NCBI GenBank assembly: GCA_024229395.1
Contig: JAAESM010000002.1
Span: forward strand, 91,682-155,681
Length of the DNA stretch: 64,000 nucleotides
DNA from: Planctomycetota bacterium
GTDB taxonomy: Bacteria; Planctomycetota; UBA1135
Direction of reading: 5' to 3'
The notes under the pieces are model-generated. The model was not told where the DNA came from. It searched no databases and saw only the letters and a list, made by a program, of their open reading frames with translations. The first letter of the stretch is position 1. Each line of letters opens with the position of its first letter. Both the position numbers and the translations under genes were made by a program. Shown here piece by piece: positions 12,843 through 34,268 of the stretch.

Positions 12843-14657
12843 CTGTTTCCGCAAGGACTCGTCCTCGTCGAGGCCGAGGCGTTTGATCATCATGGCGGTT
12901 GGGTCAATGACCAACAGTTCATGGACTTGATGGGTTCGCCCTTCCTGCTCGCGCATGGCATGGGACGCCCGGTGGAAGATGCCACCACTCATGTGCAGTT
13001 CGATGAGCCTGGCGTCTATCGCCTTTGGGTACGTACGCGCGATTGGGTGGCGCCTTGGAATGCTCCAGGTGCACCAGGGCGTTTTCAGTTGTTACTGAAT
13101 GGTCAGGCGGTAGAGACCACCTTCGGCACCGAAGGCAATGCTTGGCATTGGCAAGATGGCGGCGAAGTTCGTGTAGGCAGCCAAATGGATTTGGCTTTGC
13201 ATGACTTGACCGGCTTCGAAGGTCGTTGCGATGCAGTGATGTTCAGTAAGGACTTGGCTTACCAGCCACCTCACGACGGCAGCATGCTCGCTTCCTTGCG
13301 TTTGCAGCTCTTGGGGTTGCCAGCCGAACCGACCGTGAGTCCGGTCTATGATTTGGTCGTGGTCGGCGGTGGTGTTGCCGGTACCAGCGCTGCAGTGACG
13401 GCCGCGCGTTTGGGTTTGACCGTGGCCTTAATTCAAGATCGTCCGGTGCTTGGCGGTAACGCCAGTTCCGAAGTGCGCGTTTGGCCGGAAGGTCATGTGA
13501 ATCAGAAGCCGTTTCCGCGCGTCGGCGATGTGGTGATGGAACTCATTCCAGACAAAAAGGGTGATTCCGCCAATGCGCAAGGCGCGCATGTCTTTAATGA
13601 TCAACGGAAGTTCGATGTGGTCGGCGCAGAACCGAACATCACCTTGTTTCTGGAGCAGCGCGTCAACCGCGCCTACGCTTCGGAGTGGAACATTGAAGCG
13701 GTGTTGAGTCAACATACCCGCACCGCCGAGCGCAACTTGATTCGTGGACGTTGGTTCTTGGATAGCACCGGTGATGGCGCGGTCGGTTTCCTTGCCGGCG
13801 CCGACTTCGATCAGACTGACACCGGCCATATGGGTGCAAGCAACTTGTGGAACATCCAATGCCTATGCGAAGACGAGGATCCGCTGTCATCAGAGTTGGC
13901 CGCCGCAGTAGAAGAAGCCACCTTCCCGCGTTGTGCATGGGCAGTGGACCTTGCCGCCAAGCCTTTCCCTGGGCGCACCAAAGGAAGTACCGAGCCGCAG
14001 ACCAAGAATCCGAACAAGCCGATCAGCTTAGGCAATTGGTTCTGGGAGAACGGTTTCGATCGTGATCCGATCCACGACATGGAACGCATTCGCGATCAGA
14101 ACTTCCGAGCTATGTACGGCGCATGGGACACAATCAAGAATGTCGAGAAGCGTTACCCGGCGCACCAACTCAATTGGGTTGCGTACATTGCGGGTAAACG
14201 TGAATCACGCAGGTTGCTTGGCGATGTAATTTTGACCGCCGAGGACCTACGCGACAATGTGCAGTTCGAGGATGGCAGCTTCCCTTGTACTTGGGGAATC
14301 GATACTCATTTCCCAGCGGCCGCTTATAAGGAAGGTCATGAGGGTGATGAGTTCATCGCCGACTACACCCATGGTGAAGGCTACACCTATCAGGGTCCTT
14401 ACTGGGTTCCTTACCGTTGTCTTTATAGCCGCAACATTGACAACCTCTTCATGGCCGGCCGTGACATCAGTGTCACGCACGAAGCACTCGGTGCCGTGCG
14501 CGTGATGAAGACGACCGGTGCGATGGGGGAGATCGTTGGCATGGCTGCTTCCTTGTGCAAGCGGTTCGATTGCACGCCGCGCCAGGTTTACAGCGAGCAC
14601 CTCAGTGAGTTAAAGGCCTTGATGGAAGTTGGCGCGGGTGCCGCAGCTGGCCGTTAA
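12843..14657 (+). CDS. FAD-dependent oxidoreductase with N-terminal beta domain
   Basis: The protein has an N-terminal beta-sandwich (about residues 1-165; VYRLWVRTRDWV) followed by an FAD-binding fold of the PF12831 type: VVVGGGVAGTSAA dinucleotide loop, LGGNASSEVR flavin contact and a terminal TTGAMGEIVGMAA segment. The substrate is not known. The first ATG in frame is 12921, but the reading upstream of it (LVLVEAEAFDHHGGW) is clearly part of the beta domain. Only a CTG at 12843 is available as a start after the TGA at 12837. I therefore extend to 12843 with caution. The 3' end overlaps cobW convergently by 4 nt. Confidence 0.8.
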   Translation: MFPQGLVLVEAEAFDHHGGWVNDQQFMDLMGSPFLLAHGMGRPVEDATTHVQFDEPGVYRLWVRTRDWVAPWNAPGAPGRFQLLLNGQAVETTFGTEGNAWHWQDGGEVRVGSQMDLALHDLTGFEGRCDAVMFSKDLAYQPPHDGSMLASLRLQLLGLPAEPTVSPVYDLVVVGGGVAGTSAAVTAARLGLTVALIQDRPVLGGNASSEVRVWPEGHVNQKPFPRVGDVVMELIPDKKGDSANAQGAHVFNDQRKFDVVGAEPNITLFLEQRVNRAYASEWNIEAVLSQHTRTAERNLIRGRWFLDSTGDGAVGFLAGADFDQTDTGHMGASNLWNIQCLCEDEDPLSSELAAAVEEATFPRCAWAVDLAAKPFPGRTKGSTEPQTKNPNKPISLGNWFWENGFDRDPIHDMERIRDQNFRAMYGAWDTIKNVEKRYPAHQLNWVAYIAGKRESRRLLGDVILTAEDLRDNVQFEDGSFPCTWGIDTHFPAAAYKEGHEGDEFIADYTHGEGYTYQGPYWVPYRCLYSRNIDNLFMAGRDISVTHEALGAVRVMKTTGAMGEIVGMAASLCKRFDCTPRQVYSEHLSELKALMEVGAGAAAGR

Positions 14658-15631
14658 CAATAGGCTGCTGCTTTCAGACCGCGTTCCAACATGGCGCGAT
14701 CCAGATCGTGGCCAATGAATACGACTTCACTGATTGGCTCCGTTCCTTCGGGCCACGGCAAATCCGCTTCGACCGAATAGAGGTCATAGACGCCTTGCAA
14801 CAGACAGCGATAACGAATGCCTTGGATGTTCAAGAAACCCTTATAGCGAACCAGCTTGTCACCGAACTGTTGCACGCAGGCATCCAACCATAAGCGCGTC
14901 TTCAATTCATCAAGCGGACCTTCGCTGCGCAAGCTGACCGAAGAGATGCCGCTGTGGTGCGCTTCGTGAGCGGCTGCGGCGACGTCGGCCAAAGGCATGG
15001 CACGTTCGCGTGCCTGCAGGACTTCATGCAACGGCACATTGGCATTCGTGGTGGGGAGGATCGGTGCGGTGGGATTCAACGTGCGCAGATCCACCAGCGC
15101 TTGCTCCTTGACTTGCTCCCCGACCAGATCCGTCTTGTTCAGCACCAGTAGGTCCGCCAGTGCGATTTGCTCGACCGCCGAACGTGCCTCGACGGCGTGC
15201 GACAAGTTGGCGGCGTCGGCCAAAGTGACGACCGATTCCACTTGGTAATAAGTTGCGATTTCGTCTTCAACTAAGAAGGTGCGCAGCAGCGGTGCCGGTT
15301 CGGCGATACCGGTAGTTTCAATGATGACGCGATCGAATTGACGTCGGCGGAAAGTCGGCAAGCGCCGTTTACGCAAGGCGAGCAGGCTATCGATCAAGTC
15401 ACCGCGTACGGTGCAACATACGCAGCCATTCGACAACTCCACCACGTTGTCGTCGGAGCGAACCACCAAGCGATCATCGATGCCGATCTCGCCGAACTCA
15501 TTGACCAGGACCGCGTAACGGGTTCCGTGGTCGTTGGCGAGTAAATGATTCAATAGCGTGGTCTTTCCAGCCCCAAGCCAACCAGACAGCAGTGTGACTG
15601 GCGTGATGAGGGCGTTGCTTGTTTGCGACAT
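14654..15631 (-). CDS. CobW/ZNG1-family GTPase, metal chaperone
   Basis: A 325-residue cytoplasmic P-loop GTPase of the COG0523 group, which deliver zinc or other metals to client enzymes. Visible are the Walker A motif GWLGAGKTTLLNHLL, the switch NEFGEIGID, the metal-binding GCVCC, the ETTG Walker B region and the NKTDLV guanine-specificity motif. The CobW C-terminal domain covers about residues 220-320. It is divergent from the cysteine dioxygenase gene, which suggests shared control, although the metal cannot be read from sequence. Confidence 0.93.
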   Translation of the reverse strand: MSQTSNALITPVTLLSGWLGAGKTTLLNHLLANDHGTRYAVLVNEFGEIGIDDRLVVRSDDNVVELSNGCVCCTVRGDLIDSLLALRKRRLPTFRRRQFDRVIIETTGIAEPAPLLRTFLVEDEIATYYQVESVVTLADAANLSHAVEARSAVEQIALADLLVLNKTDLVGEQVKEQALVDLRTLNPTAPILPTTNANVPLHEVLQARERAMPLADVAAAAHEAHHSGISSVSLRSEGPLDELKTRLWLDACVQQFGDKLVRYKGFLNIQGIRYRCLLQGVYDLYSVEADLPWPEGTEPISEVVFIGHDLDRAMLERGLKAAAYC

Positions 15632-16440: not shown

Positions 16441-16532
16441 TCGGGCGGCCCAGCCGTCCCGCTTGATTTGCCGCTGGAAGTCCGCCCACTAAAGCGAGTT
16501 TCATGGCGGCATGGCGAGCCTACAATCCGCGC

Positions 16533-18767
16533 ATGACGACCGGTTTCCAGGGGTCCTTGTTCGGCGCGCCCGAAGGGCGGTATGCGCGCGTTGCGCTCGA
16601 TACCCCGGTGCGCCGTGAGTTCTCCTATCACGTGCCCGATTCCTGTGAGCCACTGGTCGCTGGCAGCAGGGTGCGCGTTCCCTTCGGCCAACGTGAAGGC
16701 CTTGGCGTGGTGGTCGGTGTGGATGATCATCCGCCATCCGATGTTCCGCCGGATCGCATCCGTTCGTTGAACGGAGTGCTTGATCCAGAGCCGCTGCTTA
16801 CTCCGGCCTTGTTGCGCTTGGCGCATTCGATTGCCGATACCACTTACTGTTCGTGGGGGCAGGCCTTGGCTGCCATGTTGCCGGCGGCGTTGCGTCGCGA
16901 TCGCCCGCGCCGCACCATTCCAGTTGTGGAGTTGGTCGAGATGCCAAGTCTCGAGCAACTCGAGAAGCTCGAGCAGTCCTATCCCAAGCAAGCCAAGGCA
17001 TTGGCTTATCTGGAACGCGCCGGTGGTCCGATGGAGTTGCGCGAGATCCGCAACCGCACCGGCTTGTCGCGTTCACCACTTGATACCTTGGCCAAGAAAG
17101 GCTTCGTCAAGTTCGGTCGCCGCAAGGAATTTCTCGATCCCTTTGCCAACGTGCCTTTGCTGCGCGACAAGCCGCCGCAACTGACTGAGCCACAACAGCA
17201 TTGTGTGGACCGTGTGCTCGAGAGTCTGGAAACACGCCAACACCAGGACTTCCTTCTGTTCGGCATCACCGGTTCGGGCAAGACCGAGATCTACTTGCAT
17301 GCACTAGAGAAGTGTTTGGAACAAGGCCGTGGCGCCATCGTGTTGGTGCCGGAGATCGCACTCACGCCGCAAACGGTTTCGCGTTTCCGTGCACGCTGCG
17401 GTGAGGTGGCGGTCTTGCACTCGGGATTGACCGATGCCGAACGTCATGACCAATGGGTAGCGATTCGTGAAGGGCGCTTGCGCGTTGTGGTGGGTGCACG
17501 CTCGGCCTTGTTCGCGCCGATCACCGACTTGGGTTTGATCATCGTCGATGAGGAACATGAGTCTTCCTTCAAGCAGGAATCCACGCCGCGATATCACGCA
17601 CGTGATGTGGCGCGTGAACGTGCACGCTTAGACGATGCCGTCTGTGTCTTGGGAAGTGCCACCCCATCATTGGAGTCATGGGCCGCGGCGCATGAAGAGA
17701 ACGGCTTGGTGAAGCTGGAGCTGCGCGAACGTGTTGCCGGTGGCAAATTGCCGAGCATCCAGATCGTCGACATGCGCGTCCAGAAACCAGAAAAGGGCAA
17801 GTGGCTAGTGATGTCGCAACCGTTGTGCTCCGCCTTAGGCAAAGCACTGAACCACGATGAACGCGCAATCCTATTCCTGAACCAACGGGGTTACGCGCCG
17901 GCGTGGCATTGCCGCGCATGTGGCGGCAGTGTGCATTGCAAGGCATGTGATGTGGCACTCACCTATCACCGTTGGCGACGCAAAGCGATCTGCCATTACT
18001 GCATGCATGAAGAGGAGCCGCCGCAGACTTGTCCGGATTGCAAAGGCCCAGTCGACATGGTCGGCGTAGGTACCGAGCGCGCTGAAGACACCGTCGAGCG
18101 CATGTTCCCCAAAGCACGTCTCGCGCGCATGGATCGCGACACCATGTTGCGACGTGAATCCTACGAGGAAGTGCTGAAGGCTTTCGGTTGCGGAGATTTC
18201 AACGTGCTGCTCGGCACGCAGATGGTGGCCAAAGGATTGGATTTCCCCGAGGTCACTCTGGTCGGTGTGTTGAACGCCGATACCGCTTTGCATCATCCGG
18301 ACTTCCGCGCCAGCGAGCGCTGTTTCAACTTGATTGCGCAAGTCGCTGGTCGTGCCGGGCGCAGTGATCGCGGCGGCAAGGTCGTGGTGCAAACTTGGAT
18401 GCCGGAACACCCGGCGTTGATTGCTGCCAAGAGCCATGACTATGCAGGTTTCGCCAAAGCGGAATTGGAAGAGCGCAAGTTGTTCAGCTTTCCGCCTTAT
18501 GGTGCCGCCATTCGTTTGAGCTTCGAAGCGGAGCACCGCAGTCGTGTCGAAGAGACTGCGCAAGCTGCAGCACAAGCTCTGCATGCCGCAGCGAATGGTG
18601 CGCGCGATATCAAGATCCTTGGACCAGCTGCGCCGCCAGTCGAAAAAATTCGCGGTCGCATTCGCAGGCAAATATTAATCCGCACCAGTCACAGTGGACT
18701 GGCACGGATTCGTGAAGTGCTTTACGACCTATGTCAAAAGCAAGGCATTACCGTCGACCCGTTGTAG
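16533..18767 (+). CDS. priA: Primosomal protein N' (PriA helicase)
   Basis: A 744-residue 3'-5' DNA helicase that restarts collapsed replication forks. The N-terminal 3'BD domain has VRVPFGQREGLGVVVG. Walker A is GITGSGKTEIY, the DEEH box is present, and the SATPS motif III is visible. Zinc-binding cysteines CRAC, CKAC, CHYC and CPDC interrupt the helicase core. Motif VI follows as QVAGRAGR, with a C-terminal domain ending at TVDPL. The ATG at 16533 (MTTGFQGSLF) is preferred to 16503, whose extra ten residues do not fit the family. Confidence 0.96.
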   Translation: MTTGFQGSLFGAPEGRYARVALDTPVRREFSYHVPDSCEPLVAGSRVRVPFGQREGLGVVVGVDDHPPSDVPPDRIRSLNGVLDPEPLLTPALLRLAHSIADTTYCSWGQALAAMLPAALRRDRPRRTIPVVELVEMPSLEQLEKLEQSYPKQAKALAYLERAGGPMELREIRNRTGLSRSPLDTLAKKGFVKFGRRKEFLDPFANVPLLRDKPPQLTEPQQHCVDRVLESLETRQHQDFLLFGITGSGKTEIYLHALEKCLEQGRGAIVLVPEIALTPQTVSRFRARCGEVAVLHSGLTDAERHDQWVAIREGRLRVVVGARSALFAPITDLGLIIVDEEHESSFKQESTPRYHARDVARERARLDDAVCVLGSATPSLESWAAAHEENGLVKLELRERVAGGKLPSIQIVDMRVQKPEKGKWLVMSQPLCSALGKALNHDERAILFLNQRGYAPAWHCRACGGSVHCKACDVALTYHRWRRKAICHYCMHEEEPPQTCPDCKGPVDMVGVGTERAEDTVERMFPKARLARMDRDTMLRRESYEEVLKAFGCGDFNVLLGTQMVAKGLDFPEVTLVGVLNADTALHHPDFRASERCFNLIAQVAGRAGRSDRGGKVVVQTWMPEHPALIAAKSHDYAGFAKAELEERKLFSFPPYGAAIRLSFEAEHRSRVEETAQAAAQALHAAANGARDIKILGPAAPPVEKIRGRIRRQILIRTSHSGLARIREVLYDLCQKQGITVDPL

Positions 18768-20572: not shown

Positions 20573-22618
20573 TTATTCCGGGCTGTCGGTGAGGTCTACC
20601 GCTTTGCCGCCGTTTGCTGTGGCGAGTTCGGCCAAGAAACTTGCCTGCACCGAACCTGCTGCGATGGTGTGGAAACGAATCCGACGATTACGATTCGAAC
20701 GCTCCAACATGCTCAGGATCGCATCGGGTGCTGTCATTGGCCCAATGGTCGGATTGCCGTCTGTCAGCAGATAGACGGTCTGTGCGCTCTCGAAAGACAA
20801 CGATGCCATCAAGGCACTGTGAAGGTTGGTTCCGCCGCCGGGTTGTGTCTGCTCGAGGAATCCTTTCGCCGACATGATGTTGTCGGCACTGGCACTGACC
20901 AATTCATTGCGCCACATCTTCACGCTGCTCGAGAACAACACGACATTGAATTGTGTATCGGCCGGCAAGTGACTGATGGTCTCATCCAGCGCGCTGGCGA
21001 AATGCTGGTAGTAGGTTTGCCGATCATTGAAACGACTCGACATCGAACCACTCACATCCAACACGAACACCACGCCTTCGCGCGCGACATCCAGACCGTG
21101 ATAAGTATTGCGCACCACGGAATGTTGGTTCTCTTCTTGCTTAGGCTTGCGGCTGTGCAGCATTGCGACTGCCTTCCTGGCCGACGGCAATTGATAGAAC
21201 TCGGGGCGCTCCTTCAACCACAGCGCCCAACTCTCACCGATTGGGCCAACATCTTCGCCACTGAGTTGGGTCAGGCAATGGATCGCGTCTTCACGGACGC
21301 GACCGTATTCCTCATTCGCCAGCTTCACCAATGCCGGCAGGGAACTAGTGCGGCGGAATGCCAGCATGCTTTCGGTGGCCATAGAGCGCACCGGCCATGC
21401 ATCATCTTCCAGCAAGGCGGTGACGGCTTCAAAGGCGGGGGTGGAGCGAGGGAAGCGGCGCAACACATTGGCGGCCTGCACGCGCTCCGCGGTATTGCTG
21501 CTGGCGGCGAGCTCCAGAATGCGCGGCTCCACAGTGACCGGCAGATTGCCCAGTTGACTTAAGGCCCACATCGCGTCACTTCGTAAACGAGCATCGTTGC
21601 TTTCCAAGCGTTGAATCAACAAGTCGCGCACCGAATCGGAACCGGAATTAACCAGACCTTCCATGGCCAAGTCACGAACCTTTTCATCTTCATGTTCGAG
21701 CAAGTTCGTCAGCGCAGGGTTGCACAGGCTAGGGCTGTCGTCGGCGTTGGTGGCCACGATGTCGGCGCAGATTCGCACCAACTCTGGATCCGGGTCACGC
21801 AGTCCGCGCTTGATCAAGATCTCGACTTCCTTGCGCTGCGTGGCTTTCTGCAAGGCAGCGGCAATGTCCTCGCGGAACATCAGGTTGGTGCCATCGGACC
21901 AGGCCTCAAGCAGCAGCAGATAGCTATGCGGTCCACCTAAGGAACCGAGCGCTTGGATTGAATTCCGACGTAGTTGAATGTCGGAGCTCTCCAATCCATC
22001 TTCCAGGTACTTGGCACCTTCCTTAAGTTGCAGATGTCCAACGCCGAATGCACCGGCCGATGCCAAAACCGGATTCTTGGACTTGACCGCTTTCATGACG
22101 GCCTTCTCCAGCTCCAAGACATCTTCGACGAGCAATCCGCGCAGCACTTCGCCGCGGATCATCAAGTTCGGTTCCACTAGGAGGCGTACATCGCGCAAGA
22201 AAATGCGGTGCTCTTGACCGGCCAGGAGGAGATCCCGGCAAGCCTGGCGGCGCACGATCTCGGAGCGGCGGTGGGCGGCCAACAGGCGCAGCTGCTCATT
22301 GGCGTAGTTGGAGTTGGCCAAATAAATCGCGTGGACAGCGGCCATCTGTTGAGGGCCTTCCAGCCTGCGCACCATCTTGACCAAGGCCTCCACCGCCTGA
22401 TCAGTACCTAGGCGGCCAATTTCGTGGATGCGCGTCACACACAGCCGGGGGGCAGCACCACTGCGGCGCAGATGCCGCAGGTCGCCGATCTGCTCCGCCA
22501 AGTTCCTGGGTAGCGGGCTATCAGCCTGGGGGGGGGGCTCCTGAGAGGTGGCCTCAGGCGCCGCTGAGAGGGCGCAGGCGGCGCTTAGAGCAAGTGAGGC
22601 AAGGGTTTTGGACTTCAC
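20573..22618 (-). CDS. Secreted HEAT-repeat protein with C-terminal VWA domain
   Basis: A 681-residue protein. A signal peptide (about residues 1-25) is followed by a short proline-rich linker encoded by a C9 tract. Ten or more HEAT/armadillo-type helical repeats then span residues 40-450, for example RLRSDAMWALSQLG and VRSMATESMLAFRR. The C-terminal VWA domain begins near residue 512 with VFVLDVSGSMS (MIDAS DxSxS) and includes GGGTNLHSAL and YLLTDGNPT, completing the metal site. Such proteins are common in planctomycetes and are presumed to mediate extracytoplasmic protein contacts. No partner is evident. Confidence 0.88.
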   Translation of the reverse strand: MKSKTLASLALSAACALSAAPEATSQEPPPQADSPLPRNLAEQIGDLRHLRRSGAAPRLCVTRIHEIGRLGTDQAVEALVKMVRRLEGPQQMAAVHAIYLANSNYANEQLRLLAAHRRSEIVRRQACRDLLLAGQEHRIFLRDVRLLVEPNLMIRGEVLRGLLVEDVLELEKAVMKAVKSKNPVLASAGAFGVGHLQLKEGAKYLEDGLESSDIQLRRNSIQALGSLGGPHSYLLLLEAWSDGTNLMFREDIAAALQKATQRKEVEILIKRGLRDPDPELVRICADIVATNADDSPSLCNPALTNLLEHEDEKVRDLAMEGLVNSGSDSVRDLLIQRLESNDARLRSDAMWALSQLGNLPVTVEPRILELAASSNTAERVQAANVLRRFPRSTPAFEAVTALLEDDAWPVRSMATESMLAFRRTSSLPALVKLANEEYGRVREDAIHCLTQLSGEDVGPIGESWALWLKERPEFYQLPSARKAVAMLHSRKPKQEENQHSVVRNTYHGLDVAREGVVFVLDVSGSMSSRFNDRQTYYQHFASALDETISHLPADTQFNVVLFSSSVKMWRNELVSASADNIMSAKGFLEQTQPGGGTNLHSALMASLSFESAQTVYLLTDGNPTIGPMTAPDAILSMLERSNRNRRIRFHTIAAGSVQASFLAELATANGGKAVDLTDSPE
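22528..22536. repeat. Nine-base C/G homopolymer inside a coding region
   Basis: Nine consecutive G on the plus strand (C on the coding strand) encode the three prolines at residues 28-30 of the HEAT-VWA protein, just after the predicted signal peptide. A tract of this length is prone to slippage; a change of one base would truncate the protein. Confidence 0.85.
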
Positions 22619-22731: not shown

Positions 22732-24129
22732 ATGTTTAAGCCTACAACCATCATTGAGCCCTTCCGCGTGAAGGTCATCGAGCCATTGCCCGTCCGGACC
22801 CGCGAACAGCGTGCCGAGGCCTTGCGAAAAGCAAAGCTCAACCTCTTTTCGGTTCATGCCGACCAGGTCACCATCGATTTGATGACAGATTCTGGAACTT
22901 CTGCCATGAGTCAGGAGCAATGGGCCGCCATCATGCGCGGCGATGAGTCCTACGCCGGCGCGCGGTCGTTCTTCCGGTTCTCGGAAACGGTGAAGCAGCT
23001 GACCGGCATGGAGCACATCATCCCTGTGCACCAGGGGCGTGCGGCTGAACGAATCCTGTTCACGGTGCTTGGTGGCAGCGGCAAGGTCATCCCAGCCAAC
23101 ACGCACTTCGATACCACGCGCGCCAACGTTGAAGCCAGCGGTGCCGAAGCGCTCGACCTGGTGATCGAAGAGGGCAAAGATCCAGCGACCGAACACCCAT
23201 TCAAAGGCAATCTTGATGTCGACGCCCTGACCAAAGTCTTGAGCGAACGCAGCAAGGATGTGCCCATGGTCGTGATGACGGTCACCAACAACTCTGGTGG
23301 CGGGCAACCGGTATCGCTCGAGAACATGAAGCAGGTGCGCGAAATCTGCGACAAGTTCAAGGTGCCACTCTTCCTTGACTGTGCACGCTTCGCCGAGAAC
23401 GCATGGTTCATCAAGCTGCGTGAAGAGGGGCAAGCACATCGCACGCCCAAGGAGATCTCCGAGGAAATGTTCCGTCTTGCCGACGGTGCGTGGATGTCGT
23501 CGAAGAAAGATGCCTTCGGAAACATCGGTGGTTTCTTGTCGTTGAAAGATGACAGCGTTGCGGGAGAGTGCCGCAACATGCTTATCCTCACCGAAGGCTT
23601 CCCGACGTATGGCGGTCTTGCCGGTCGTGACTTGGAAGCGCTTTCGGTTGGGTTACAGGAAGTGCTCGAAGAGGATTACCTGGAGTACCGCATCCGCAGC
23701 ACCGAATATGTTTGGCGGCACCTCGATGAAGCAGGCGTGCCACTGTTGCGCCCAGCCGGAGGTCATGCCGTGTACCTGGATGCGCGTGAGTTCTTGCCGC
23801 ATGTCCCTCCTGGCGAGTTGCCCGGTCAATCCATCAGTGTGGCAATGTTCCTCGAAGGGGGAGTGCGCGCTTGTGAGATCGGAACGGTCATGTTCGGTCA
23901 CACTTTGCCCGACGGCACCCAGGAAGCCGGTCCGATGGATCTAGTGCGCTTAGCCATTCCGCGTCGCGTCTACACGCAATCGCATATGGACTACGTGATC
24001 GAGGCGGTGAGTTATGTCTTCGAGCGTCGCGAACAACTCGGTGGCTTGAAGATCATCGACGAGCCATCGGCGTTGCGTCACTTCACCTGCGGATTCGAAG
24101 CCCTCGGCTGGGACCCCTTCGCAAAGTAG
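22732..24129 (+). CDS. tnaA: Tryptophanase (tryptophan indole-lyase)
   Basis: A 465-residue PLP enzyme of the beta-eliminating lyase family that converts tryptophan to indole, pyruvate and ammonia. The PLP lysine is K259 in SSKKDAFG. Two positions separate tryptophanase from tyrosine phenol-lyase. The residue matching Arg381 of the Citrobacter lyase is Ile383 here (ACEIGT), and the residue matching its Phe448 is His450 (LRHFTC), both as in E. coli TnaA. Length is typical. No tnaC-like leader or tryptophan permease gene was seen nearby. Confidence 0.92.
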   Translation: MFKPTTIIEPFRVKVIEPLPVRTREQRAEALRKAKLNLFSVHADQVTIDLMTDSGTSAMSQEQWAAIMRGDESYAGARSFFRFSETVKQLTGMEHIIPVHQGRAAERILFTVLGGSGKVIPANTHFDTTRANVEASGAEALDLVIEEGKDPATEHPFKGNLDVDALTKVLSERSKDVPMVVMTVTNNSGGGQPVSLENMKQVREICDKFKVPLFLDCARFAENAWFIKLREEGQAHRTPKEISEEMFRLADGAWMSSKKDAFGNIGGFLSLKDDSVAGECRNMLILTEGFPTYGGLAGRDLEALSVGLQEVLEEDYLEYRIRSTEYVWRHLDEAGVPLLRPAGGHAVYLDAREFLPHVPPGELPGQSISVAMFLEGGVRACEIGTVMFGHTLPDGTQEAGPMDLVRLAIPRRVYTQSHMDYVIEAVSYVFERREQLGGLKIIDEPSALRHFTCGFEALGWDPFAK

Positions 24130-24168: not shown

Positions 24169-26493
24169 TCAGTAAAGTTCCACTTCGGCAAAGCCAACAC
24201 TCGCGCCCTTGCCGAGTTGTCCGTGATCCAAGGAGATCACGCGCAGCTTGATGGTCTTGACCTGGATTTTCTTATCGAATTCCAGGACCGCCTTCTCATG
24301 GATGTAAGTCGGCATGCGCACCACCTTCGGCGCCAAGTCATTGATCGTGACCTCTACTAAATGCGGCGCCGGGGATCCATGAAGGCCCTGCAACTCACGC
24401 GGCGCCATCACGATCTTCAACACCGACGCCTTGCGTTTGCGTCGGAAGGAGATCTCTGCATAGGGCTGACTGTCCTTGGCCTTGCAGCGCCAAGAAGTGA
24501 AATAGAGGCCGTCAGTGAGGGATTGTGGCAGATTCCGTGGTCCGGAGCTTGAAGCCTTAACCGTTGGGGAACCCGCTGGCGCCAAGTTGGAATCGCCTTC
24601 GGTGACATAAGCAAGTCGCTGCGCAGAGATGCCTTCACTCTGATGGAAGTCGATGGTGCCGGAACCCAGCATGGTGCCGTCGTTCAATTGCGCATCGGCA
24701 CGCACTTTCCAATCACCGCGTTCCGCAAGTTCATATTGAATCGCGAAACGATTCTCGAACATCTCTTCCACGCGTTGCCAAGGTGAGTCCGGAGCCTGGA
24801 CCCAATAGATTACGCGCGCGATCTCGTCGAAGCCCTTCGTTTGGCTGTCGACCCACAGGGAGTTCGGCTGGTTCATCGACAGGCGCAGCAACAACGGCCC
24901 GTCTTCCGGCGCCGATTGGAACAAGCGATCATTGCGTAGATTCACGTTCGTCAATGCATGACGAGAAGTAGCTTTGCGCAGGAACAGCAGGGCGAAGGAT
25001 TCGACGATTGGGGAGGCGTCGTCATCCCAGCGGCCATTCCCATGTTGATCGTCGACGATCTTCTCTGCACCTTCAAGATACCAAGCGTGACTTCCGAACA
25101 TGTCCAAGCCAGCTAGTCCACCGGCGCGTTCGAGGCCATAGTAGTAGTAATAGGAATGCATGCTTGGCTTCCCGTCATATAGCGCCCAATGACTACCAAG
25201 CCATCGAGCTCCACTCTGAATCGAACTCTGCGCTCGCACGACCAGCTTGTCCCTTTCGCCGCGCGCAAGGTTCGCGATACAGATCGCCAAGGTGCCAACG
25301 CCCGCGGCAGTCATGGAAGGGGAAACCGGGTTGCCGTTGCCGTAACTAAAACCATGGGTGGCATTGCTGCTGGCCTTGGTGCTGCCACCCTCTCGGCAAG
25401 CCAACATCGCACGCGTCAAGCTTTCCCATGTGGCCTGCGGAATATCCACACCGCCCTTCGCGGCGGCGCGCAATCCGAGAGCGGCGTATTGAGTATTGGA
25501 AAGGTCACCGCCGGTCGACGATTCGGTCAGGCCATAAGACCACATGCCGTTACTCGCCTGACCACGAATCAAGAACTCGGCAATCGAGGCGATGAGTTCC
25601 TTATCTTGCGGATCCCCTCCAGCTTGCAAGGCCATCAACTCCAAAGCTACGGAGTAAGTCCCTTGCGCACGTGGCTGATTACGCAAATAAGCCAAGCCTT
25701 TCAATACCGCTTCACTGCGCGACGACTGTCCACTATGAATCAAGGTGTAGACGCCGAGCGCGGTCGTTGCATTCGGGTAGTGGCCATAAGGGGGCCAAGA
25801 GCCATCGATCAACTGGGTGTCCAATAAGTAATCCACACCTAGGTCGATCGAGCGATTGATGCGCGGCACGCTGATGTGCCGCTGACTGCGCATCTCGAAT
25901 TGCCACTCGGGGGATTCATCGTGCACTTCAAGCAGCAAGTGATTCAATCCCGGTTGCAGATCGAGCGTAAGCTTCACGCTTTTCACATCGAGATGTTGGA
26001 AGGGCTTGCGTTTGGCCATGGCGCGTCCATTCCACCAAACGGTCATGCGCCCAGCTGCCCCACATGTCACCACAGTGGTGCCGCTCGAGGTGGCATAAAC
26101 GGGGCGATACAGATAAATCACCTGCTTGTCCTGCGGCTCACCCGGGATGAGGGCTCGCAGGTCAATCGTGCCACTGTCTAAACCAACTCTCTCGCGTGGA
26201 TTGGCAAGTTTCTTATCTACTGCATTGAGGTAGCGCTCCAGATTGACCGGATTCCACCCCAAGATCGTTTCGCCAGCGCTGGCGTATTCCGTGCGCAGTG
26301 CAGCCCAAGGCGCTCCAGCGCGCATGTCCTTGATCTCCGCATAAAGACCATCAGGGCCTTTGCTATCTGGCCCCGGAAGCGGCCCGAGCATCTTCCACGC
26401 GCCCGGACGCATGGCTTCCAGCACCTCGTCGGCGCTTTGTTGCGGCTGCGCCCAGCATGGGGTGGCCAACAGGAATAATGAAACCAGGAGCAT
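24169..26493 (-). CDS. Secreted alpha/alpha-toroid protein with C-terminal discoidin-like domain (paralog 1)
   Basis: A 774-residue protein, started at ATG 26493 where a signal peptide (MLLVSLFLLATPCWAQ) begins. Residues about 30-210 form a beta-rich domain with a motif common in planctomycete carbohydrate-binding modules (WWNGRAMAKRK, LQPGLNHLLLEV). Residues about 210-520 carry prenyltransferase/squalene-cyclase-type helical repeats (LIDGSWPPYGHY, ASNGMWSYG), but the catalytic aspartates of terpene cyclases are not recognisable. The last 170 residues look like a galactose-binding/discoidin domain ending GFAEVELY. The 30.1-32.4 kb protein shares this order and its ending. Function unknown. 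Confidence 0.8.
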   Translation of the reverse strand: MLLVSLFLLATPCWAQPQQSADEVLEAMRPGAWKMLGPLPGPDSKGPDGLYAEIKDMRAGAPWAALRTEYASAGETILGWNPVNLERYLNAVDKKLANPRERVGLDSGTIDLRALIPGEPQDKQVIYLYRPVYATSSGTTVVTCGAAGRMTVWWNGRAMAKRKPFQHLDVKSVKLTLDLQPGLNHLLLEVHDESPEWQFEMRSQRHISVPRINRSIDLGVDYLLDTQLIDGSWPPYGHYPNATTALGVYTLIHSGQSSRSEAVLKGLAYLRNQPRAQGTYSVALELMALQAGGDPQDKELIASIAEFLIRGQASNGMWSYGLTESSTGGDLSNTQYAALGLRAAAKGGVDIPQATWESLTRAMLACREGGSTKASSNATHGFSYGNGNPVSPSMTAAGVGTLAICIANLARGERDKLVVRAQSSIQSGARWLGSHWALYDGKPSMHSYYYYYGLERAGGLAGLDMFGSHAWYLEGAEKIVDDQHGNGRWDDDASPIVESFALLFLRKATSRHALTNVNLRNDRLFQSAPEDGPLLLRLSMNQPNSLWVDSQTKGFDEIARVIYWVQAPDSPWQRVEEMFENRFAIQYELAERGDWKVRADAQLNDGTMLGSGTIDFHQSEGISAQRLAYVTEGDSNLAPAGSPTVKASSSGPRNLPQSLTDGLYFTSWRCKAKDSQPYAEISFRRKRKASVLKIVMAPRELQGLHGSPAPHLVEVTINDLAPKVVRMPTYIHEKAVLEFDKKIQVKTIKLRVISLDHGQLGKGASVGFAEVELY

Positions 26494-26530
26494 GCTTCTG
26501 TCTAGGCTAGCGTCGCGGCAACGGTAACTT

Positions 26531-29500
26531 GTGATTTCAGTGCTCAACCCCTCCACCCTCCTCCAAAGCACGTGGCGCCTCGCTTTCGGCGCTCTCGTCG
26601 TGCTCGGCTGCGCCACCACCACGGCATCAGGCCAATCCAAGGGCAGTCAGGATGCCCCCCAAGAGCATGTCAGCATTGAGTATGGCCGCAAGGCGATGGC
26701 CGCTGGTGACTACTCTGAAGCCTATGGCCACTACTTGTTCGGCCTGGCGCGCACCACGAGCCCATTTGAAGTGGTGCAACTGCTGCTCGAAAATTCGGTG
26801 CTAGCCGCCGACGCCGACGCCAACGCACTGTGGGCCCATGATTTCTATGCTCTTGGCGCCGACATCCGTGGCCGCGTGAAGTTGAAGCCGGGTGTCTCCA
26901 AGTTGCTTCCTGAAGAAGATGACTATCCGTCGTCGTTGTCGGTCGCGCGCGCCGAAGCCGTGCGTGAGTTGATGAAGTTTCGCGACGCACGTGCGCGCAG
27001 CAAACGAGTCGGTGACCCCTTGTTGGCGGAGTGGGCCGAAGACCTTGCACGGCAACTGGCTTTGGAGTCGCCAGCCTTGCAGGCAGAGTATGCCGCAAAG
27101 TTGGATCCAAGCCTGGCGGTGAATCGCAAGGTGCAACGTCAAGTCACGCGCGGCTTAGAGAAATTGATCCGCGATGGATTCGGTGGCGGCGGCAATGATT
27201 TGGTCATTCGCGCGGCACGCTGCCTGCGCGGCCTTGGTGCACAAGCGAATTTCAAGGATCTGAAAGGACCGGAGCCACCGGACATGAGTGGTGAACTTTC
27301 AACGGCGTCGGCGGCTTTGGCACGTGCACGTCAAGCGATGGCAAGCAGCGGTGTGAAGGTCTGGAGCATCGAGGAACTGGAAGACCTGGATGAGGATCAA
27401 CAACGCGCATTCACTTTGGAGCATGGCTCCTTCGCCAGCCCAGGCGTGGCACTTTCACCGAACGGTTGGTATTTAATCGAGACTAACTGTGGCTATTGGA
27501 CTTTGCTCGGCGCGGCGCAAACGGTCGAGGAACATCACAAGCGCCTGGTCAATTGGTATGGCCAGGATCCATTCATTGGCATTCAGGGCATCGTGCGATT
27601 GGTGCCGGAATCTTATGGCCTAGAGATGGAAGGTTCGCCGTTCTGGTGGGCCGGTGGCTTCCAAGGCGGCAATGTGACCACCTTGAAGTTCACCATCAGT
27701 ACGATTCCAGCGCTGGGTCGTGGTTTGACTCACGAACTCACACACCGTTTCGATGGCGGTGCTTTCGGTGGATTGCCCGCATGGTTGAGCGAAGGGCGCG
27801 CGGTGTGGACAGGCGGCAGTTATGGTTCGATGTACGACGAACAGTTCATCGAAGACTATGTCAACTACGGCACGCTGTTTGGCGTTTCCAATGATGGCTA
27901 CGGCGATCAAGAAAACCTAGAGGAACTGATTGCAGGCACCATCGAAGAGTATCGCGATAACTACTCTGCCGGTTATGCCTTGTTCGTGTACTTGCGTTCG
28001 TGGACCGGTTTCCTGGAGGAACCGTTTGAAGACGAGGACGGCAACGAGCATGTTTACCACGACGAGGACAACGCCACACCGATCTTCGCCGAACAGCTCG
28101 AGAAGTTCATGGCCGACCGCAAGCGCGCGCGCGGTGGGGCAGTGGCTGGTTTCGCCAAGTACTTCGCCGACGGCAAGGATGGTCGCCCAGCCGATATGGA
28201 AACCTTCGCGCGCGACTACAAACGTTTCCTGCGCGGCTTCTATTGGAAGGACTTCGCACCATGGGTAGAACTTTACGATCCGCGCGCGCCAGCAAACGCC
28301 GACGACAACCGTCGCGTCTACGATGAACCTACTTTCACTTGGCTACGCAATCGCGCCGAGCCATGGTTCGGTCAGGACCAAGCACGTGTTGCTGCAGCCT
28401 TGTTCTCAGAAGTGAAGTCCATCGATGATGCGGTTGCCGCATATCGTTGGTGCTTGGCCGTGGATGAACCGAGCGATGCAACCTTGGAACAATTGGTTGC
28501 CGACCTGCAACGCATGAAGTTGGATGATGCAGCCTGGGTAATGCAGAAGTGGCAGCGTTTCAGGTCGCCGCTGCGTGACTATGAAGGCAGCATCCTCGGC
28601 CCAGCACCGTTCCTTGGCAAGTTGCCGCGCGTGCAGGCCTTGTTGGAGAATCGCGCAGCTGCTGCGAAGGATTATCAGAGTCGTGGTTGGCATCAAGCAG
28701 CCGCCGCAATCGCTGCCGATCATGATCAACTTGCCAGTGCCGTCGGCGAACAGCTGATGGACTTCGCTCGCCCGGAAGGTGAGTTCCTCCATCCTTACAC
28801 GCGCCCAGGTCGTCACCTTAGTTTGGGCGAGTGGAGTGAGAGCGGTTTGACCGGATTGGAAGACAACCGCATTGAAGGTAACTGGTTCGTCGATTACCAA
28901 GACGACGTGCATGTCGGGCGTAAGACTGCACGCACTGGCACCGACACCATGGACCGTGATGCGCGCGGCAGCGATGCCTTCGTGCATTCACTCGAGTGGC
29001 AGGATTCGGGGCGCTATCAACTGACCGCCAAGATCGAACAGACTACCGAGTATTACAGTGCCGGGGTAACCCTCGGTTGGACGCGCCGCGATCGCAACAT
29101 CCGTTTCAGTTTCACCGGTGGCGACTATCGTTTCGCGACCAAGCAATCCGAGGACCGCGAAGACGGCTACGGATTCGGTTGGAACCTGAATGGGCTGTAC
29201 GCACGCCAAGGAGCCAAGAGTGGCAGCGTTGGATTCGCCCGACGCAAAACCACCTGGAACCTGAGAATGTTGGTCGATGGCCCAACCGTAGAAGTCTTCG
29301 TCGATGACAAGTACGTTGCCTCATTGACCACGCTCGACGCTCGCCCGATTCAGGGTTACATCGGCTTCTTCACCTCGACCGGCGCCATGCGTGTGATCCA
29401 GCCTCAGGTCACGCGTTTGGATCGAGAGCTGTTTGGCCCAACTGCAACTAGTTCCGGACGCGGCCTGCATCCATCACGCAAGGGCGCCGATCGGATGCGT

Positions 29501-30013
29501 GATTTCATTGGTCGGCCTGTCACTGGCTTGCCACTGGCTGGCGCTGGTACTGCAATCCTGTGGATTCCAGGCGAGAGCGATAAGCATCGGCAGGAGATGA
29601 AAGATGGCGAATGGCGCGAGGCAGTCGAGAAGACCTTGGTGACGTTCCTCGAGAACTGGGTGGTCGAAGATCCCAGTCAAGGGATCACGGTGGTGCTGCC
29701 GGAATCCATGCTCGAAACGGATCGCAACGCTCTGCAGAAGTTCTTCGCAGAGCAGCCGGATGATGAAGAGTTCGTGTTGCCCCGCGGCGGTCTACGTTGG
29801 GCAAGTCACAGCTCCGACTTGGACATCACCGAACGCGGCATGACTGTCGGTGGTTGGATTCGTCCGCTGCTTGGTTTCGCTGACCCAGCTGGCATCATGC
29901 GCTACCACGCGCGCATGTCACGTTCGCGCGTTTCCTTGCCGAAGGAGCTCCGCACCTTACTGCGCGAGTACCAGGACCATTCGCGTCCAGGTCAAGCCGG
30001 CGCTGGTGATTAA
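26531..30013 (+). CDS. Large gluzincin metallopeptidase-like lipoprotein
   Basis: A 1160-residue protein with a GTG start. The hydrophobic N-terminus with VVLGC (Cys27) suggests a lipoprotein. After a helical region, the zinc motif H401-E402-L-T-H405 is followed 16 residues later by Glu421 in WLSEGRAVW, the third ligand expected in peptidase MA-like gluzincins. A jelly-roll domain (about residues 750-980; WFVDYQDDVHVGRK to YIGFFTSTGAM) resembles LamG/glucanase folds, and a final alpha/beta region of about 170 residues is unassigned. It is divergent from one toroid gene (37-nt gap) and convergent with the other. The substrate is unknown. Confidence 0.82.
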   Translation: MISVLNPSTLLQSTWRLAFGALVVLGCATTTASGQSKGSQDAPQEHVSIEYGRKAMAAGDYSEAYGHYLFGLARTTSPFEVVQLLLENSVLAADADANALWAHDFYALGADIRGRVKLKPGVSKLLPEEDDYPSSLSVARAEAVRELMKFRDARARSKRVGDPLLAEWAEDLARQLALESPALQAEYAAKLDPSLAVNRKVQRQVTRGLEKLIRDGFGGGGNDLVIRAARCLRGLGAQANFKDLKGPEPPDMSGELSTASAALARARQAMASSGVKVWSIEELEDLDEDQQRAFTLEHGSFASPGVALSPNGWYLIETNCGYWTLLGAAQTVEEHHKRLVNWYGQDPFIGIQGIVRLVPESYGLEMEGSPFWWAGGFQGGNVTTLKFTISTIPALGRGLTHELTHRFDGGAFGGLPAWLSEGRAVWTGGSYGSMYDEQFIEDYVNYGTLFGVSNDGYGDQENLEELIAGTIEEYRDNYSAGYALFVYLRSWTGFLEEPFEDEDGNEHVYHDEDNATPIFAEQLEKFMADRKRARGGAVAGFAKYFADGKDGRPADMETFARDYKRFLRGFYWKDFAPWVELYDPRAPANADDNRRVYDEPTFTWLRNRAEPWFGQDQARVAAALFSEVKSIDDAVAAYRWCLAVDEPSDATLEQLVADLQRMKLDDAAWVMQKWQRFRSPLRDYEGSILGPAPFLGKLPRVQALLENRAAAAKDYQSRGWHQAAAAIAADHDQLASAVGEQLMDFARPEGEFLHPYTRPGRHLSLGEWSESGLTGLEDNRIEGNWFVDYQDDVHVGRKTARTGTDTMDRDARGSDAFVHSLEWQDSGRYQLTAKIEQTTEYYSAGVTLGWTRRDRNIRFSFTGGDYRFATKQSEDREDGYGFGWNLNGLYARQGAKSGSVGFARRKTTWNLRMLVDGPTVEVFVDDKYVASLTTLDARPIQGYIGFFTSTGAMRVIQPQVTRLDRELFGPTATSSGRGLHPSRKGADRMRDFIGRPVTGLPLAGAGTAILWIPGESDKHRQEMKDGEWREAVEKTLVTFLENWVVEDPSQGITVVLPESMLETDRNALQKFFAEQPDDEEFVLPRGGLRWASHSSDLDITERGMTVGGWIRPLLGFADPAGIMRYHARMSRSRVSLPKELRTLLREYQDHSRPGQAGAGD

Positions 30014-30049
30014 GGAATAGCAACCAGCAAACGGCGCCAGCCCTGGCAA

Positions 30050-32362
30050 CTATTGCAGCTCGATTTCGCTGAAGCCGACCGAAGCCGAACCTAACTTACC
30101 ACCGGTGATTTCGACGATGCGGATCTTGATGTAACGGACCTTCGTCTTGGTCGGGAAATCGATCACCGTCTTATGGAAAGGGTCGGGATTAATCTCGTAG
30201 ACCGTGGGCTCCTTTTCCTTGTTCAACCACAACTCGATCTTGGTCGGGCGAGGGTTGTTGTTCTGATCCCAAATCCGGGTCAGTGCATGCGACAGCTGCA
30301 AACGACTGGCTTTGGCGCGGCGCTTGAGTTCGATCTCCAACCATGGGTTGGCATCGGCGGCTTCGCAACGCCAGCGCGTGTACCAAAGGTTATCCACCAG
30401 GCGACCACCACCCTCATTGCTGAGGTTGGATGAGATCGACATCTGCGGGCGATAAGCCGGCAGAATATTGCGCATGGAATCGCTGGCGTAGGACAAGGTG
30501 TTCGGGTCCACGCCAATCTTCAGTTCGAAACGAACGGTGCCGGACTTGCTGGTCGCGCCACTCTCGAAGTGACCTACGCAACGCACCTCATAGGTTCCAC
30601 TCTGGGTGGTTCCGTATTGCTTGGCGTAACGATTCTCGATTGACGTACCGATCGATTCCCACTTCTCGCCGTCGGCGCGCAGGAAATACTCCACGGCATC
30701 GGGCTTGGCATCTTCTGGTGGGATCACCCACATGGTCATGGGGCTTGATGTCACGACATGAAGCCTCAGCTCACCATCCTCTGGCAGTGAGAGATGCAGA
30801 TCGTTCTTCTTCTTGTTGCTGACACTGCCGCCTGTGGTCGCCACTGCCGACGCCTTCTTCAGGAACAACAGCGCAAAGCTGGTGGAGCTGCAGTTGCGGC
30901 CCCAAGGATCACGCCACTGACCCTTATCACCTTGTTTGTTGATCAAGTAAGCAGCGCCAGCTTGGTACCAATCATGGTCGCCGAAGGTCTTGGTATCGAG
31001 GAAGGCGCCAATACGTTCAACACCATAGAGCCAGTAGTAGGTCCAGGAGTCACCATTGAACGGGTTGCTTGCCGCCACGAACTCACGATCCATCCAGGCC
31101 ATGCCTTGCGGAATGGCGCGTTTGACCTTCACGCGATAACCGTTCTTGATGTCGTCACCGAGTTGCTCCTGTGCGATCGCGAGGACCGTCAAACCTGCAG
31201 TGGTCATCGAGCCGGTGACTAGTCTGCCTTTGTAATAAGCGAATCCGGTCGGCACGATGCTAGCCGCGCGCTTGACCTTTTCTTGTGCCAATAGCGCACC
31301 ATCGATCGATTCGTACCAGACCTTGGCTGGGATCTCCGCGCCAGCTCCAGCTGCAGCGCGCAAACCAAGCACTGCGAATTGCGTGCAAGACAAATCCGCA
31401 TGGCCACCGGGATAAGCCCATTGACCATCGTTCTCTTGCCAAGAAATCAGGTCTTCGGCGCGCTCTTCAATTTGCTCCAGATAACTTGGGTCATTCAGTG
31501 CTGCAAGCGCCATCAATTCGCAGGAAGCCGAGTAGGTCATGTCCGACGGCTCACAGCTGATGTACTCAAGGCCGCGCAAAATTGCGGGGTGCTTCGGATC
31601 GACACCAGAACTCAACAGGGCGTACAAAGCTAAGGCAGTCGCGCCGTTGCGATAACTTCCGCGTTCCTCTGCCCAAGAACCGTCGAGCATTTGCAGGCTA
31701 ATTAGATGCTCCACGCCACGGTCGACGGCATTGTTGATCGCGGATTGCTCTATGCCACGTGGCTTTTGCATCTCGAAAGCCCAGGCACCACCTTGATTGG
31801 TAACCTTGACCAATACGTGATTCAATCCTTCCTTCAGTTTGAGGGTAAGGCTTTCATCAAATGGGCTCATGCCGCGAGCCACACCTTTGGCGAAAACCTG
31901 CTCGCCGTTTAACCACATGGCACAGCCGTCATCGCTGCCGAACATGATCGGTACTTTGATATCACGCGTTGCGGTCAACGGCACATAAAGGTAGGCCGCT
32001 AACTTGCCGGTCTTGCCACACAAAGCCCACAAGTCGAACTTGCCACTATCCACGGCAGTCTTGCCACGCGGGTTGGTTCCCTTGGCCTTCTTCCAAACCA
32101 AGGCGCCGTCGCCATGCTGGAAGTTATGGTCCAATCCTGACCACGACTGGCCGACCTTCATCTTCTTCAGAAAGTCTTCCGGTTCATGAACCGAACCAAG
32201 AACAGCGCCTTCGGGATGGTCAAAGCCGACGACGACCTGCCAATCTCCGGCGGTGACTTCAGCTTGGAATGCCAGGGCGGGTGCACCGAACAGCGTGAAC
32301 GCTGCGACACTGATCAGCAAGGTCAGGACAGACTGTGGGCGAGGTAGGGTTCTCGGGGGCAC
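30050..32362 (-). CDS. Secreted alpha/alpha-toroid protein with C-terminal discoidin-like domain (paralog 2)
   Basis: A 770-residue paralog of the 24.2-26.5 kb protein with the same order. It has a signal peptide ending near ALAFQ, a beta domain with MWLNGEQVFAKG and LKEGLNHVLVKV, then toroid repeats from about residue 205 (QMLDGSWAEERG, ENDGQWAYPGG, ATALALYALL). The C-terminal galactose-binding-like domain ends GFSEIELQ. The two paralogs diverge strongly in detail but align along their whole length by eye, which points to an old duplication. The start is the upstream ATG at 32362. No enzymatic residues were recognised. Confidence 0.82.
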   Translation of the reverse strand: MPPRTLPRPQSVLTLLISVAAFTLFGAPALAFQAEVTAGDWQVVVGFDHPEGAVLGSVHEPEDFLKKMKVGQSWSGLDHNFQHGDGALVWKKAKGTNPRGKTAVDSGKFDLWALCGKTGKLAAYLYVPLTATRDIKVPIMFGSDDGCAMWLNGEQVFAKGVARGMSPFDESLTLKLKEGLNHVLVKVTNQGGAWAFEMQKPRGIEQSAINNAVDRGVEHLISLQMLDGSWAEERGSYRNGATALALYALLSSGVDPKHPAILRGLEYISCEPSDMTYSASCELMALAALNDPSYLEQIEERAEDLISWQENDGQWAYPGGHADLSCTQFAVLGLRAAAGAGAEIPAKVWYESIDGALLAQEKVKRAASIVPTGFAYYKGRLVTGSMTTAGLTVLAIAQEQLGDDIKNGYRVKVKRAIPQGMAWMDREFVAASNPFNGDSWTYYWLYGVERIGAFLDTKTFGDHDWYQAGAAYLINKQGDKGQWRDPWGRNCSSTSFALLFLKKASAVATTGGSVSNKKKNDLHLSLPEDGELRLHVVTSSPMTMWVIPPEDAKPDAVEYFLRADGEKWESIGTSIENRYAKQYGTTQSGTYEVRCVGHFESGATSKSGTVRFELKIGVDPNTLSYASDSMRNILPAYRPQMSISSNLSNEGGGRLVDNLWYTRWRCEAADANPWLEIELKRRAKASRLQLSHALTRIWDQNNNPRPTKIELWLNKEKEPTVYEINPDPFHKTVIDFPTKTKVRYIKIRIVEITGGKLGSASVGFSEIELQ

Positions 32363-33470: not shown

Positions 33471-34268
33471 TTAGTCGCGACGCGACATCAGCAGCATCAG
33501 CATGTACTTGAACATGATGATGAAGTCGATTAGCAAGGTGGCCGCCGCCATTGCAGCCATGTCCTCGGGGTAGCGTTGCATGATCTTCTGGGTGTCGTAG
33601 AGGACGAAGCCGCCCATCAGTAGAACTCCTGCGAGTGGGAAACCCCAGCCAGATACGATGTTCTCTCCGATGCCGAAGACGCTCGCCATAATGGCGATCG
33701 CGAACAGGCCAAATAAGCCCATCCAAAGGGCACCACGAAGCCAGGAGAAATCGCGTTTGGTCGTTAAGGCGTAGGCCGAAAGCCCGCCAAAGACGCCAAC
33801 CGTCAGGCCAAAGGCCTGGGTGACGATGTTGCCGCCGGCCAGCAGTAGGCTTGGCTCAAGGGCCATCAATTGGCCAGCTTCATTGAAAACCGGGAATCCC
33901 TGAGTGGTGGCTAGAGCGACATAGATTAGTGGAGCAGTCAGGAAACCCTCCACTACGCCAAATAAGCCAAGGCCGAATAGGGCAACAGGCGTGCTGCCTC
34001 GGGCAGTCAGGCTGAGCACGAAGAACATGCCGCCGAACAGCAGAAGGAATCCAAGGAAGCCCATGCTGAAGAGGTTTACTGCGGTCTCAAGCAGCGCGGT
34101 GTTCGTGGTCACCAACACAGCGGTACCCATCCACACGGCCATCGCTGCGCCGAACATGGCGTAGACCTTGCGCAGGAATGCGATCCGGATAGTTGGAGTG
34201 GCTTGAGCAACGCTGCCAGTGACGACCGCGCCGCCAATCCGTGCAGATCCTGAATTAGGGTAGTCCAT
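33471..34268 (-). CDS. Bax inhibitor-1/YccA family membrane protein
   Basis: A 265-residue inner-membrane protein with about seven transmembrane helices, the BI-1/TMBIM fold. The family signature lies in the last third (FVLYDTQKIMQRYPEDM), with the aspartate used in the pH-gated ion leak of bacterial relatives. It is the last gene of the minus-strand unit NagZ, SSF symporter, BI-1 (30-nt gap from the symporter). The role is presumed calcium/proton leak or membrane-protease regulation and is unproven here. Confidence 0.92.
   Translation of the reverse strand: MDYPNSGSARIGGAVVTGSVAQATPTIRIAFLRKVYAMFGAAMAVWMGTAVLVTTNTALLETAVNLFSMGFLGFLLLFGGMFFVLSLTARGSTPVALFGLGLFGVVEGFLTAPLIYVALATTQGFPVFNEAGQLMALEPSLLLAGGNIVTQAFGLTVGVFGGLSAYALTTKRDFSWLRGALWMGLFGLFAIAIMASVFGIGENIVSGWGFPLAGVLLMGGFVLYDTQKIMQRYPEDMAAMAAATLLIDFIIMFKYMLMLLMSRRD

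What the first reader, a model, noticed from the sequence alone, without database searches (positions are those of the whole stretch)
24169..32362. Island of two paralogous toroid/discoidin proteins around a large gluzincin lipoprotein
Seen: the paralogs share one architecture (beta domain with the xWxNGxxxx-K/G and LNHxLxxV pattern, helical toroid repeats with DGSW motifs, C-terminal galactose-binding-like domain) and enclose a 1160-residue HELTH/E metallopeptidase-like protein with a LamG-like fold. A third toroid protein with a PDZ-like front lies at 46.8 kb. Terpene-cyclase aspartates are not visible, so a binding or scaffolding role outside the cell is more likely than cyclisation. This may be an undescribed extracytoplasmic processing system.
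Basis: partly seen in the sequence, partly recalled or inferred. Interest (0 to 1): 0.65.

Follow-up and report, generated by a model that had tools for sequence, protein, structure and literature searches.

The report
Exported peptidase paired with toroid protein
In one family of uncultured marine planctomycete bacteria, the gene for an undescribed exported metallopeptidase sits tail-to-tail with a gene for a sugar-binding-like toroid protein, and the two have moved around the chromosome together, which suggests, but does not prove, that the proteins work together.

Summary
A (24169-26493, -) and B (30050-32362, -) are 34% identical. B is modelled (pLDDT 87) as beta-domain, 12-helix toroid, Ig-like and F5/8C domains. 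M (26531-30013, +) is an exported gluzincin-type protein whose HELTH...E residues are invariant in 35 orthologues. Corrections: the lipobox of M is not conserved; the 46.8-kb protein is DUF6288, not a detectable relative of A or B; A is a family-restricted paralogue, truncated in one relative and absent in another.

The decisive result is comparative. M-B, convergent with touching or interlocked stop codons, is adjacent in the window and in 12 of 18 relatives of this family that carry both genes, in at least five genomic settings that share almost no other genes. G010 has the empty site. G012 keeps both flanks joined but carries M-B elsewhere, so the pair moved as a unit. Outside the family the link is absent (1 of 19 genomes with both genes) and presence is uncorrelated, so it is not a general planctomycete system. 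Best reading: a two-gene exported peptidase plus binding-protein module; the joint function is inferred. Interest 0.4.

The parts
24169..26493 (-). Gene A: exported toroid protein, paralogue of B; listed ORF starts at 26640 (TTG), likely start at the signal peptide MLLVSLFLLATPCWAQ near 26493
   Evidence: one clade in the tree
24961..25875 (-). A: alpha/alpha toroid domain (about residues 256-560), placed by alignment with B
   Evidence: SQHop_cyclase_C weak match
24172..24573 (-). A: C-terminal F5/8C-like domain
   Evidence: PF00754 E 0.19 for A alone; aligned with B's confirmed domain
26531..30013 (+). Gene M: exported HELTH...E gluzincin-type metallopeptidase-like protein, 1160 aa
26660..27421 (+). 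M: N-terminal helical (TPR-like) region, residues 44-297
   Evidence: model; weak TPR matches
27428..28000 (+). M: peptidase domain, residues 300-490
   Evidence: PF13485 sub-threshold; invariant residues
27731..27745 (+). M: HELTH motif (H401-H405), invariant
27791..27793 (+). M: E421, third ligand candidate (HExxH-x15-E), invariant
28883..29416 (+). M: LamG/concanavalin-like beta-sandwich, residues 785-962
   Evidence: Foldseek; PF08244 E 4.7e-5
29537..29920 (+). M: C-terminal alpha/beta domain, residues 1003-1130, thioredoxin-like topology without CxxC (inference from secondary structure only)
   Evidence: no Pfam match
30011..30052 (.). M/B convergent junction: 36 bp here, -4 to 8 bp in the relatives examined
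30050..32362 (-). Gene B: exported four-domain toroid protein
31766..32257 (-). B: N-terminal beta domain (36-199)
   Evidence: model; no Pfam match
30848..31753 (-). B: alpha6/alpha6 toroid (204-505)
   Evidence: Foldseek to squalene-hopene cyclase-like 8paj/8pak TMt 0.55-0.61
30512..30802 (-). B: Ig/FN3-like domain (521-617; fold inferred)
   Evidence: no Pfam match
30053..30505 (-). B: F5/8C (CBM32-like) domain (620-770)
   Evidence: PF00754/PF22633; 2v72 TMt 0.73
20573..22618 (-). Left flank of the island: HEAT-repeat/VWA protein, part of the conserved block
33471..34268 (-). Right flank of the island: Bax1-I family protein; adjacent to HEAT/VWA in G010, which lacks M

Best explanation
M and B form a two-gene exported module. 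M is a secreted zinc (gluzincin-type) endopeptidase with a lectin-like beta-sandwich. B is a secreted, non-cyclase toroid protein whose jelly-roll and F5/8C domains bind a glycan or glycoprotein surface. The proposed action is that B holds M's substrate, or M itself, at that surface while M cleaves the protein part. A is a later duplicate of the B type with a divergent partner specificity. Shown: export signals by inspection, folds by model, invariant peptidase residues, and co-relocation of M and B. Inferred: catalysis, sugar binding, physical partnership and substrate.
For: Catalytic residues invariant in 35 orthologues. Confident models of both proteins. Carbohydrate-binding-like folds in both. 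M-B adjacent and convergent in the window and 12 relatives (G001-G005, G012-G015, G021-G023), in at least five settings sharing almost no other neighbours. In G010 and G012 the flanks stay joined without M-B, while G012 carries M-B elsewhere, so the pair moved together. Within the family full-length toroids occur only with M: 17 genomes with both, 2 with M only, 4 with neither (p 0.0017, not corrected for phylogeny).
Against: The link is confined to one family; elsewhere only 1 of 19 genomes with both genes has them on one contig, and presence is uncorrelated (p 0.47). Inside the family the pair is broken in G008 and G020, 30 kb apart in G011, and loosened to 2-12 kb in G006, G007 and G016. 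Convergent genes are not co-transcribed. Interlocked stops could by themselves discourage separation. An unrelated pair (CobW-PriA) is also kept adjacent in every family member tested, though inside an unmoved block. No complex was modelled.
Confidence: 0.42

Rival explanations
1. Hitch-hiking. M and B have unrelated functions and stay together because their 3' ends touch or interlock, so few breakpoints between them are harmless. They were moved once or a few times by chance as one DNA segment.
For: Stops overlap or abut in most relatives; the CobW-PriA control shows unrelated genes can stay adjacent across the family; no linkage outside the family.
Against: Insertions of 2-12 kb between M and B did occur (G006, G007, G016), so separation is tolerated, yet most genomes keep the pair in at least five settings. 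Presence within the family is also correlated.
Confidence: 0.35
2. The toroid is catalytic, for example a secreted lyase, hydrolase or other enzyme of the alpha/alpha toroid class acting on a polysaccharide, and M is a companion peptidase for glycoprotein breakdown.
For: The toroid is the most conserved domain, with many invariant polar and aromatic residues (D227, S229, W230, Y277, D323, S325, Y446, E449, R450). A heparinase-like gene occupies the same site in G012.
Against: Best solved matches are cyclase-like and complement TED toroids, not lyases, in the top 50. My test for a conserved pocket at inner-helix N-termini was negative (p 0.81). No known catalytic motif.
Confidence: 0.13
3. B is a protease regulator: a thioester-less, complement/alpha2-macroglobulin-like TED protein that binds and restrains M.
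For: The order beta domain - toroid - Ig-like resembles CUB-TED-MG8; Foldseek returns C3b, C4b, C5 and TEP1.
Against: Those alignments have rmsd 30-45 and TM 0.18-0.25, so they are probably chance chaining of domains. No CGEQ in any of 30 sequences and no bait region or MG1-6.
Confidence: 0.05

Closest known systems
Squalene-hopene cyclase/prenyltransferase toroid superfamily (PF13243, PF13249)
   Same: 12-helix alpha/alpha toroid; 20 of 30 family members match PF13243 at E<0.01; the short cyclase-like structures 8paj/8pak are the best single-domain match.
   Different: One toroid instead of two, exported, fused to three beta domains, no conserved DxDD.
Toroid + Ig-like + F5/8C proteins of the same order, without the N-terminal domain
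   Same: Matches cover profile positions 205-770; common in the order, with toroid-only matches elsewhere in the phylum.
   Different: Lack the N-terminal beta domain that defines A and B; not linked to M.
Peptidase_MA_2 (PF13485) gluzincins
   Same: HExxH plus downstream E in a WL-x-EG context; sub-threshold matches in 3 of 35.
   Different: Below the gathering score; adds TPR-like, LamG-like and C-terminal alpha/beta domains; undescribed as a family in the libraries searched.
F5/8C / CBM32 domains
   Same: B residues 620-769 above the Pfam cut-off; 2v72 (galactose-binding CBM32) TMt 0.73.
   Different: Ligand unknown.

Membership tests
Squalene-hopene / oxidosqualene cyclases | alpha/alpha toroid fold | tested here: met
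Squalene-hopene / oxidosqualene cyclases | Conserved catalytic DxDD(TA) motif | tested here: not met
   DxDD anywhere in only 4 of 30 sequences
Squalene-hopene / oxidosqualene cyclases | Family-level score (TIGR01507 cut-off 431, TIGR01787 cut-off 322.7) | tested here: not met
   25.6 and 30.5 bits for B
Thioester-domain (complement/alpha2-macroglobulin) proteins | CGEQ thioester motif | tested here: not met
   0 of 30
Gluzincin metallopeptidases (clan MA(E)) | HExxH plus third-ligand Glu downstream | tested here: met
   H401, E402, H405, E421 invariant in 35
Gluzincin metallopeptidases (clan MA(E)) | Curated family score (PF13485 cut-off 32.4) | tested here: not met
   17.1 bits
Gluzincin metallopeptidases (clan MA(E)) | Zinc-dependent peptidase activity | not testable with these tools
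   needs purified protein
F5/8C (CBM32-like) domain | Pfam gathering score | tested here: met
   B 29.5 against 28.2 (PF00754) and 30.8 against 27.8 (PF22633); A not met on its own
Bacterial lipoproteins | Conserved lipobox cysteine in M | tested here: not met
   Cys only in the closest congeners
Operonic two-gene system | Same-strand co-transcribed genes | tested here: not met
   M and B are convergent in all relatives where they are adjacent
Known anti-phage defence system | PADLOC model match | tested here: not met

The most novel reading that the evidence does not exclude
M is the type of an undescribed exported gluzincin peptidase family of Planctomycetota. In one family of that phylum it has acquired a dedicated toroid partner protein, kept as a relocating tail-to-tail pair whose overlapping 3' ends also couple expression of the two genes.
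Probability: 0.15. Interest if true: 0.7.

Novelty: new variant of a known kind. Interest (0 to 1): 0.4.

Why it matters
Toroid-F5/8C proteins are among the commoner uncharacterised exported proteins of these planctomycetes, and the M peptidase family is present in most genomes of its order but lies below every curated family cut-off tried. If the pair works together, it gives the first functional handle on both: a protease whose partner tells where it acts.

Tried and rejected
Operon: rejected, strands differ. Terpene cyclase: rejected on the missing motif. Complement-like TED: only fragmentary structural overlap and no thioester. Link to the 46.8-kb DUF6288 protein: no significant sequence similarity and no linkage evidence. 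Defence system: no PADLOC match. Conserved pocket at the inner-helix N-termini of the toroid: tested statistically, negative. Another conserved neighbour of M across clades: none found; other shared neighbours are clade-specific synteny. Literature: no paper found for the planctomycete toroid family. First co-occurrence count used a wrong total for the family and was redone. PDB sequence search with the peptidase domain gave nothing significant.

Full report
What is there. The finding covers three genes: A (-), M (+) and B (-). A and B are paralogues, 34% identical over 731 aa. M is 1160 aa. A and M diverge and M and B converge, so this is not an operon. A's ORF as listed (TTG at 26640) is too long: the signal peptide begins at residue 50, and the same SYRC...S-MLLVS junction is seen in relatives.

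Domains. An AlphaFold2 model of B from 30 homologues (mean pLDDT 87.3, pTM 0.75) shows a beta domain (36-199), twelve helices (206-501), an Ig-like domain (522-614, fold name inferred from secondary structure) and a F5/8C domain (620-769). Foldseek matches the toroid to short squalene-hopene-cyclase-like structures (8paj, 8pak, TMt 0.55-0.61) and the C-terminus to CBM32 (2v72, TMt 0.73). The cyclase DxDD motif is not conserved (4 of 30 sequences contain one anywhere) and the TED thioester motif is absent. The toroid is the most conserved domain (mean 0.57 against 0.41-0.48 for the beta domains), but a specific test for a conserved pocket at the inner-helix N-termini was negative.

M (pLDDT 87.5, pTM 0.86) has a helical N-terminal half, a peptidase core, a LamG-like sandwich (GH32C E 4.7e-5) and a C-terminal alpha/beta domain. 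H401, E402, H405 and E421 are invariant in 35 orthologues. Pfam sees the peptidase only below cut-off. A lipobox-like cysteine occurs only in close congeners.

Where it occurs. The window lies in a MAG of 3.1 Mb. Relatives include Planctomycetes bacterium UBA1135; UBA1135 is listed as an unassigned class by PMC11131199. M is in 48 of 61 close relatives, 82 of 128 genomes of the order and 26 of 147 sampled across the phylum. The toroid domain is more widespread (64 of 147), mostly without the N-terminal domain; the version with the N-terminal domain appeared only in the window's own order in that sample.

Linkage. In the window's family, M and B are adjacent and convergent in G000 (the window), G001-G005, G012-G015 and G021-G023; they lie 2-12 kb apart in G006, G007 and G016, 30 kb apart in G011, and on different contigs in G008 and G020. 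Apart from M and toroids, the loci of G012, G013/G007, G015/G023, G021 and the window group share almost no neighbours with one another (short contigs in G012, G021 and G023 limit this). Stop codons interlock by 4 bp in G003, G005, G012, G013 and G014, abut in G001, G015 and G023, and are 3-8 bp apart in G002, G004 and G021. In the window the gap is 36 bp.

Relocation. In the window's genus the island lies in a conserved block: CobW, PriA, HEAT/VWA, then Bax1-I, SSF transporter, GH3. In G010, which lacks M, HEAT/VWA is directly next to Bax1-I: the empty site. In G014 only M and B occupy the site; G022's two contigs are consistent with the same layout. In G012 the block is intact with a heparinase-like ORF there, and M-B sits elsewhere, between an isocitrate/isopropylmalate dehydrogenase and a 553-aa ORF without a Pfam match, with a MmgE/PrpD gene beyond. 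The pair therefore entered or left the site as a unit.

Controls. CobW-PriA, with no evident functional link, is adjacent in every family member tested, so family-wide adjacency alone is weak evidence; but that pair sits inside a block that did not move. Outside the family, toroid and M presence are independent (p 0.47) and on one contig in 1 of 19 genomes. Inside the family they associate (17 both, 2 M only, 4 neither; p 0.0017, not corrected for phylogeny). Presence or absence in incomplete MAGs is uncertain.

A. The A sequences form one clade (SH-aLRT 100), found next to M in G000, G001, G002, G003 (truncated), G005, G006 and G008, and absent beside M in G004. It is an accessory duplicate, not a defining part.

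Verdict. The M-B pair is real and has been maintained through relocation in one family. That supports, without proving, a shared exported function. The hitch-hiking rival is close behind.

Noticed in passing
window 46798-48315 (-): DUF6288 protein (PF19805, E 8.5e-49) with a weak N-terminal PDZ match; not detectably related to A or B by BLAST.
   Followed up: partly
L193:12783-15134 (G012): Heparinase II/III-like ORF occupies the site where relatives carry the M-B island, suggesting a spot of repeated gene turnover.
   Followed up: partly
window 22732-24129 (+): Tryptophanase/tyrosine phenol-lyase-like gene (PRK13238) inserted beside the island in the window's genus; scores below the specific TnaA and tyrosine phenol-lyase cut-offs.
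   Followed up: no
L076:11679-12851 (G003) and L075:8516-11936 (G002): A is truncated in G003 (390 aa) and M is split into two ORFs in G002; decay or assembly error not distinguished.
   Followed up: no
window 14654-15631 (-) and 16503-18767 (+): Divergent CobW GTPase and PriA helicase genes are adjacent in every family member examined.
   Followed up: partly
window 29537-29920 (+): C-terminal domain of M has a thioredoxin-like order of secondary structure but no CxxC and no Pfam match.
   Followed up: partly
window 20573-22618 (-): Exported HEAT-repeat plus VWA protein forms the left border of the island in all family members with the block.
   Followed up: partly
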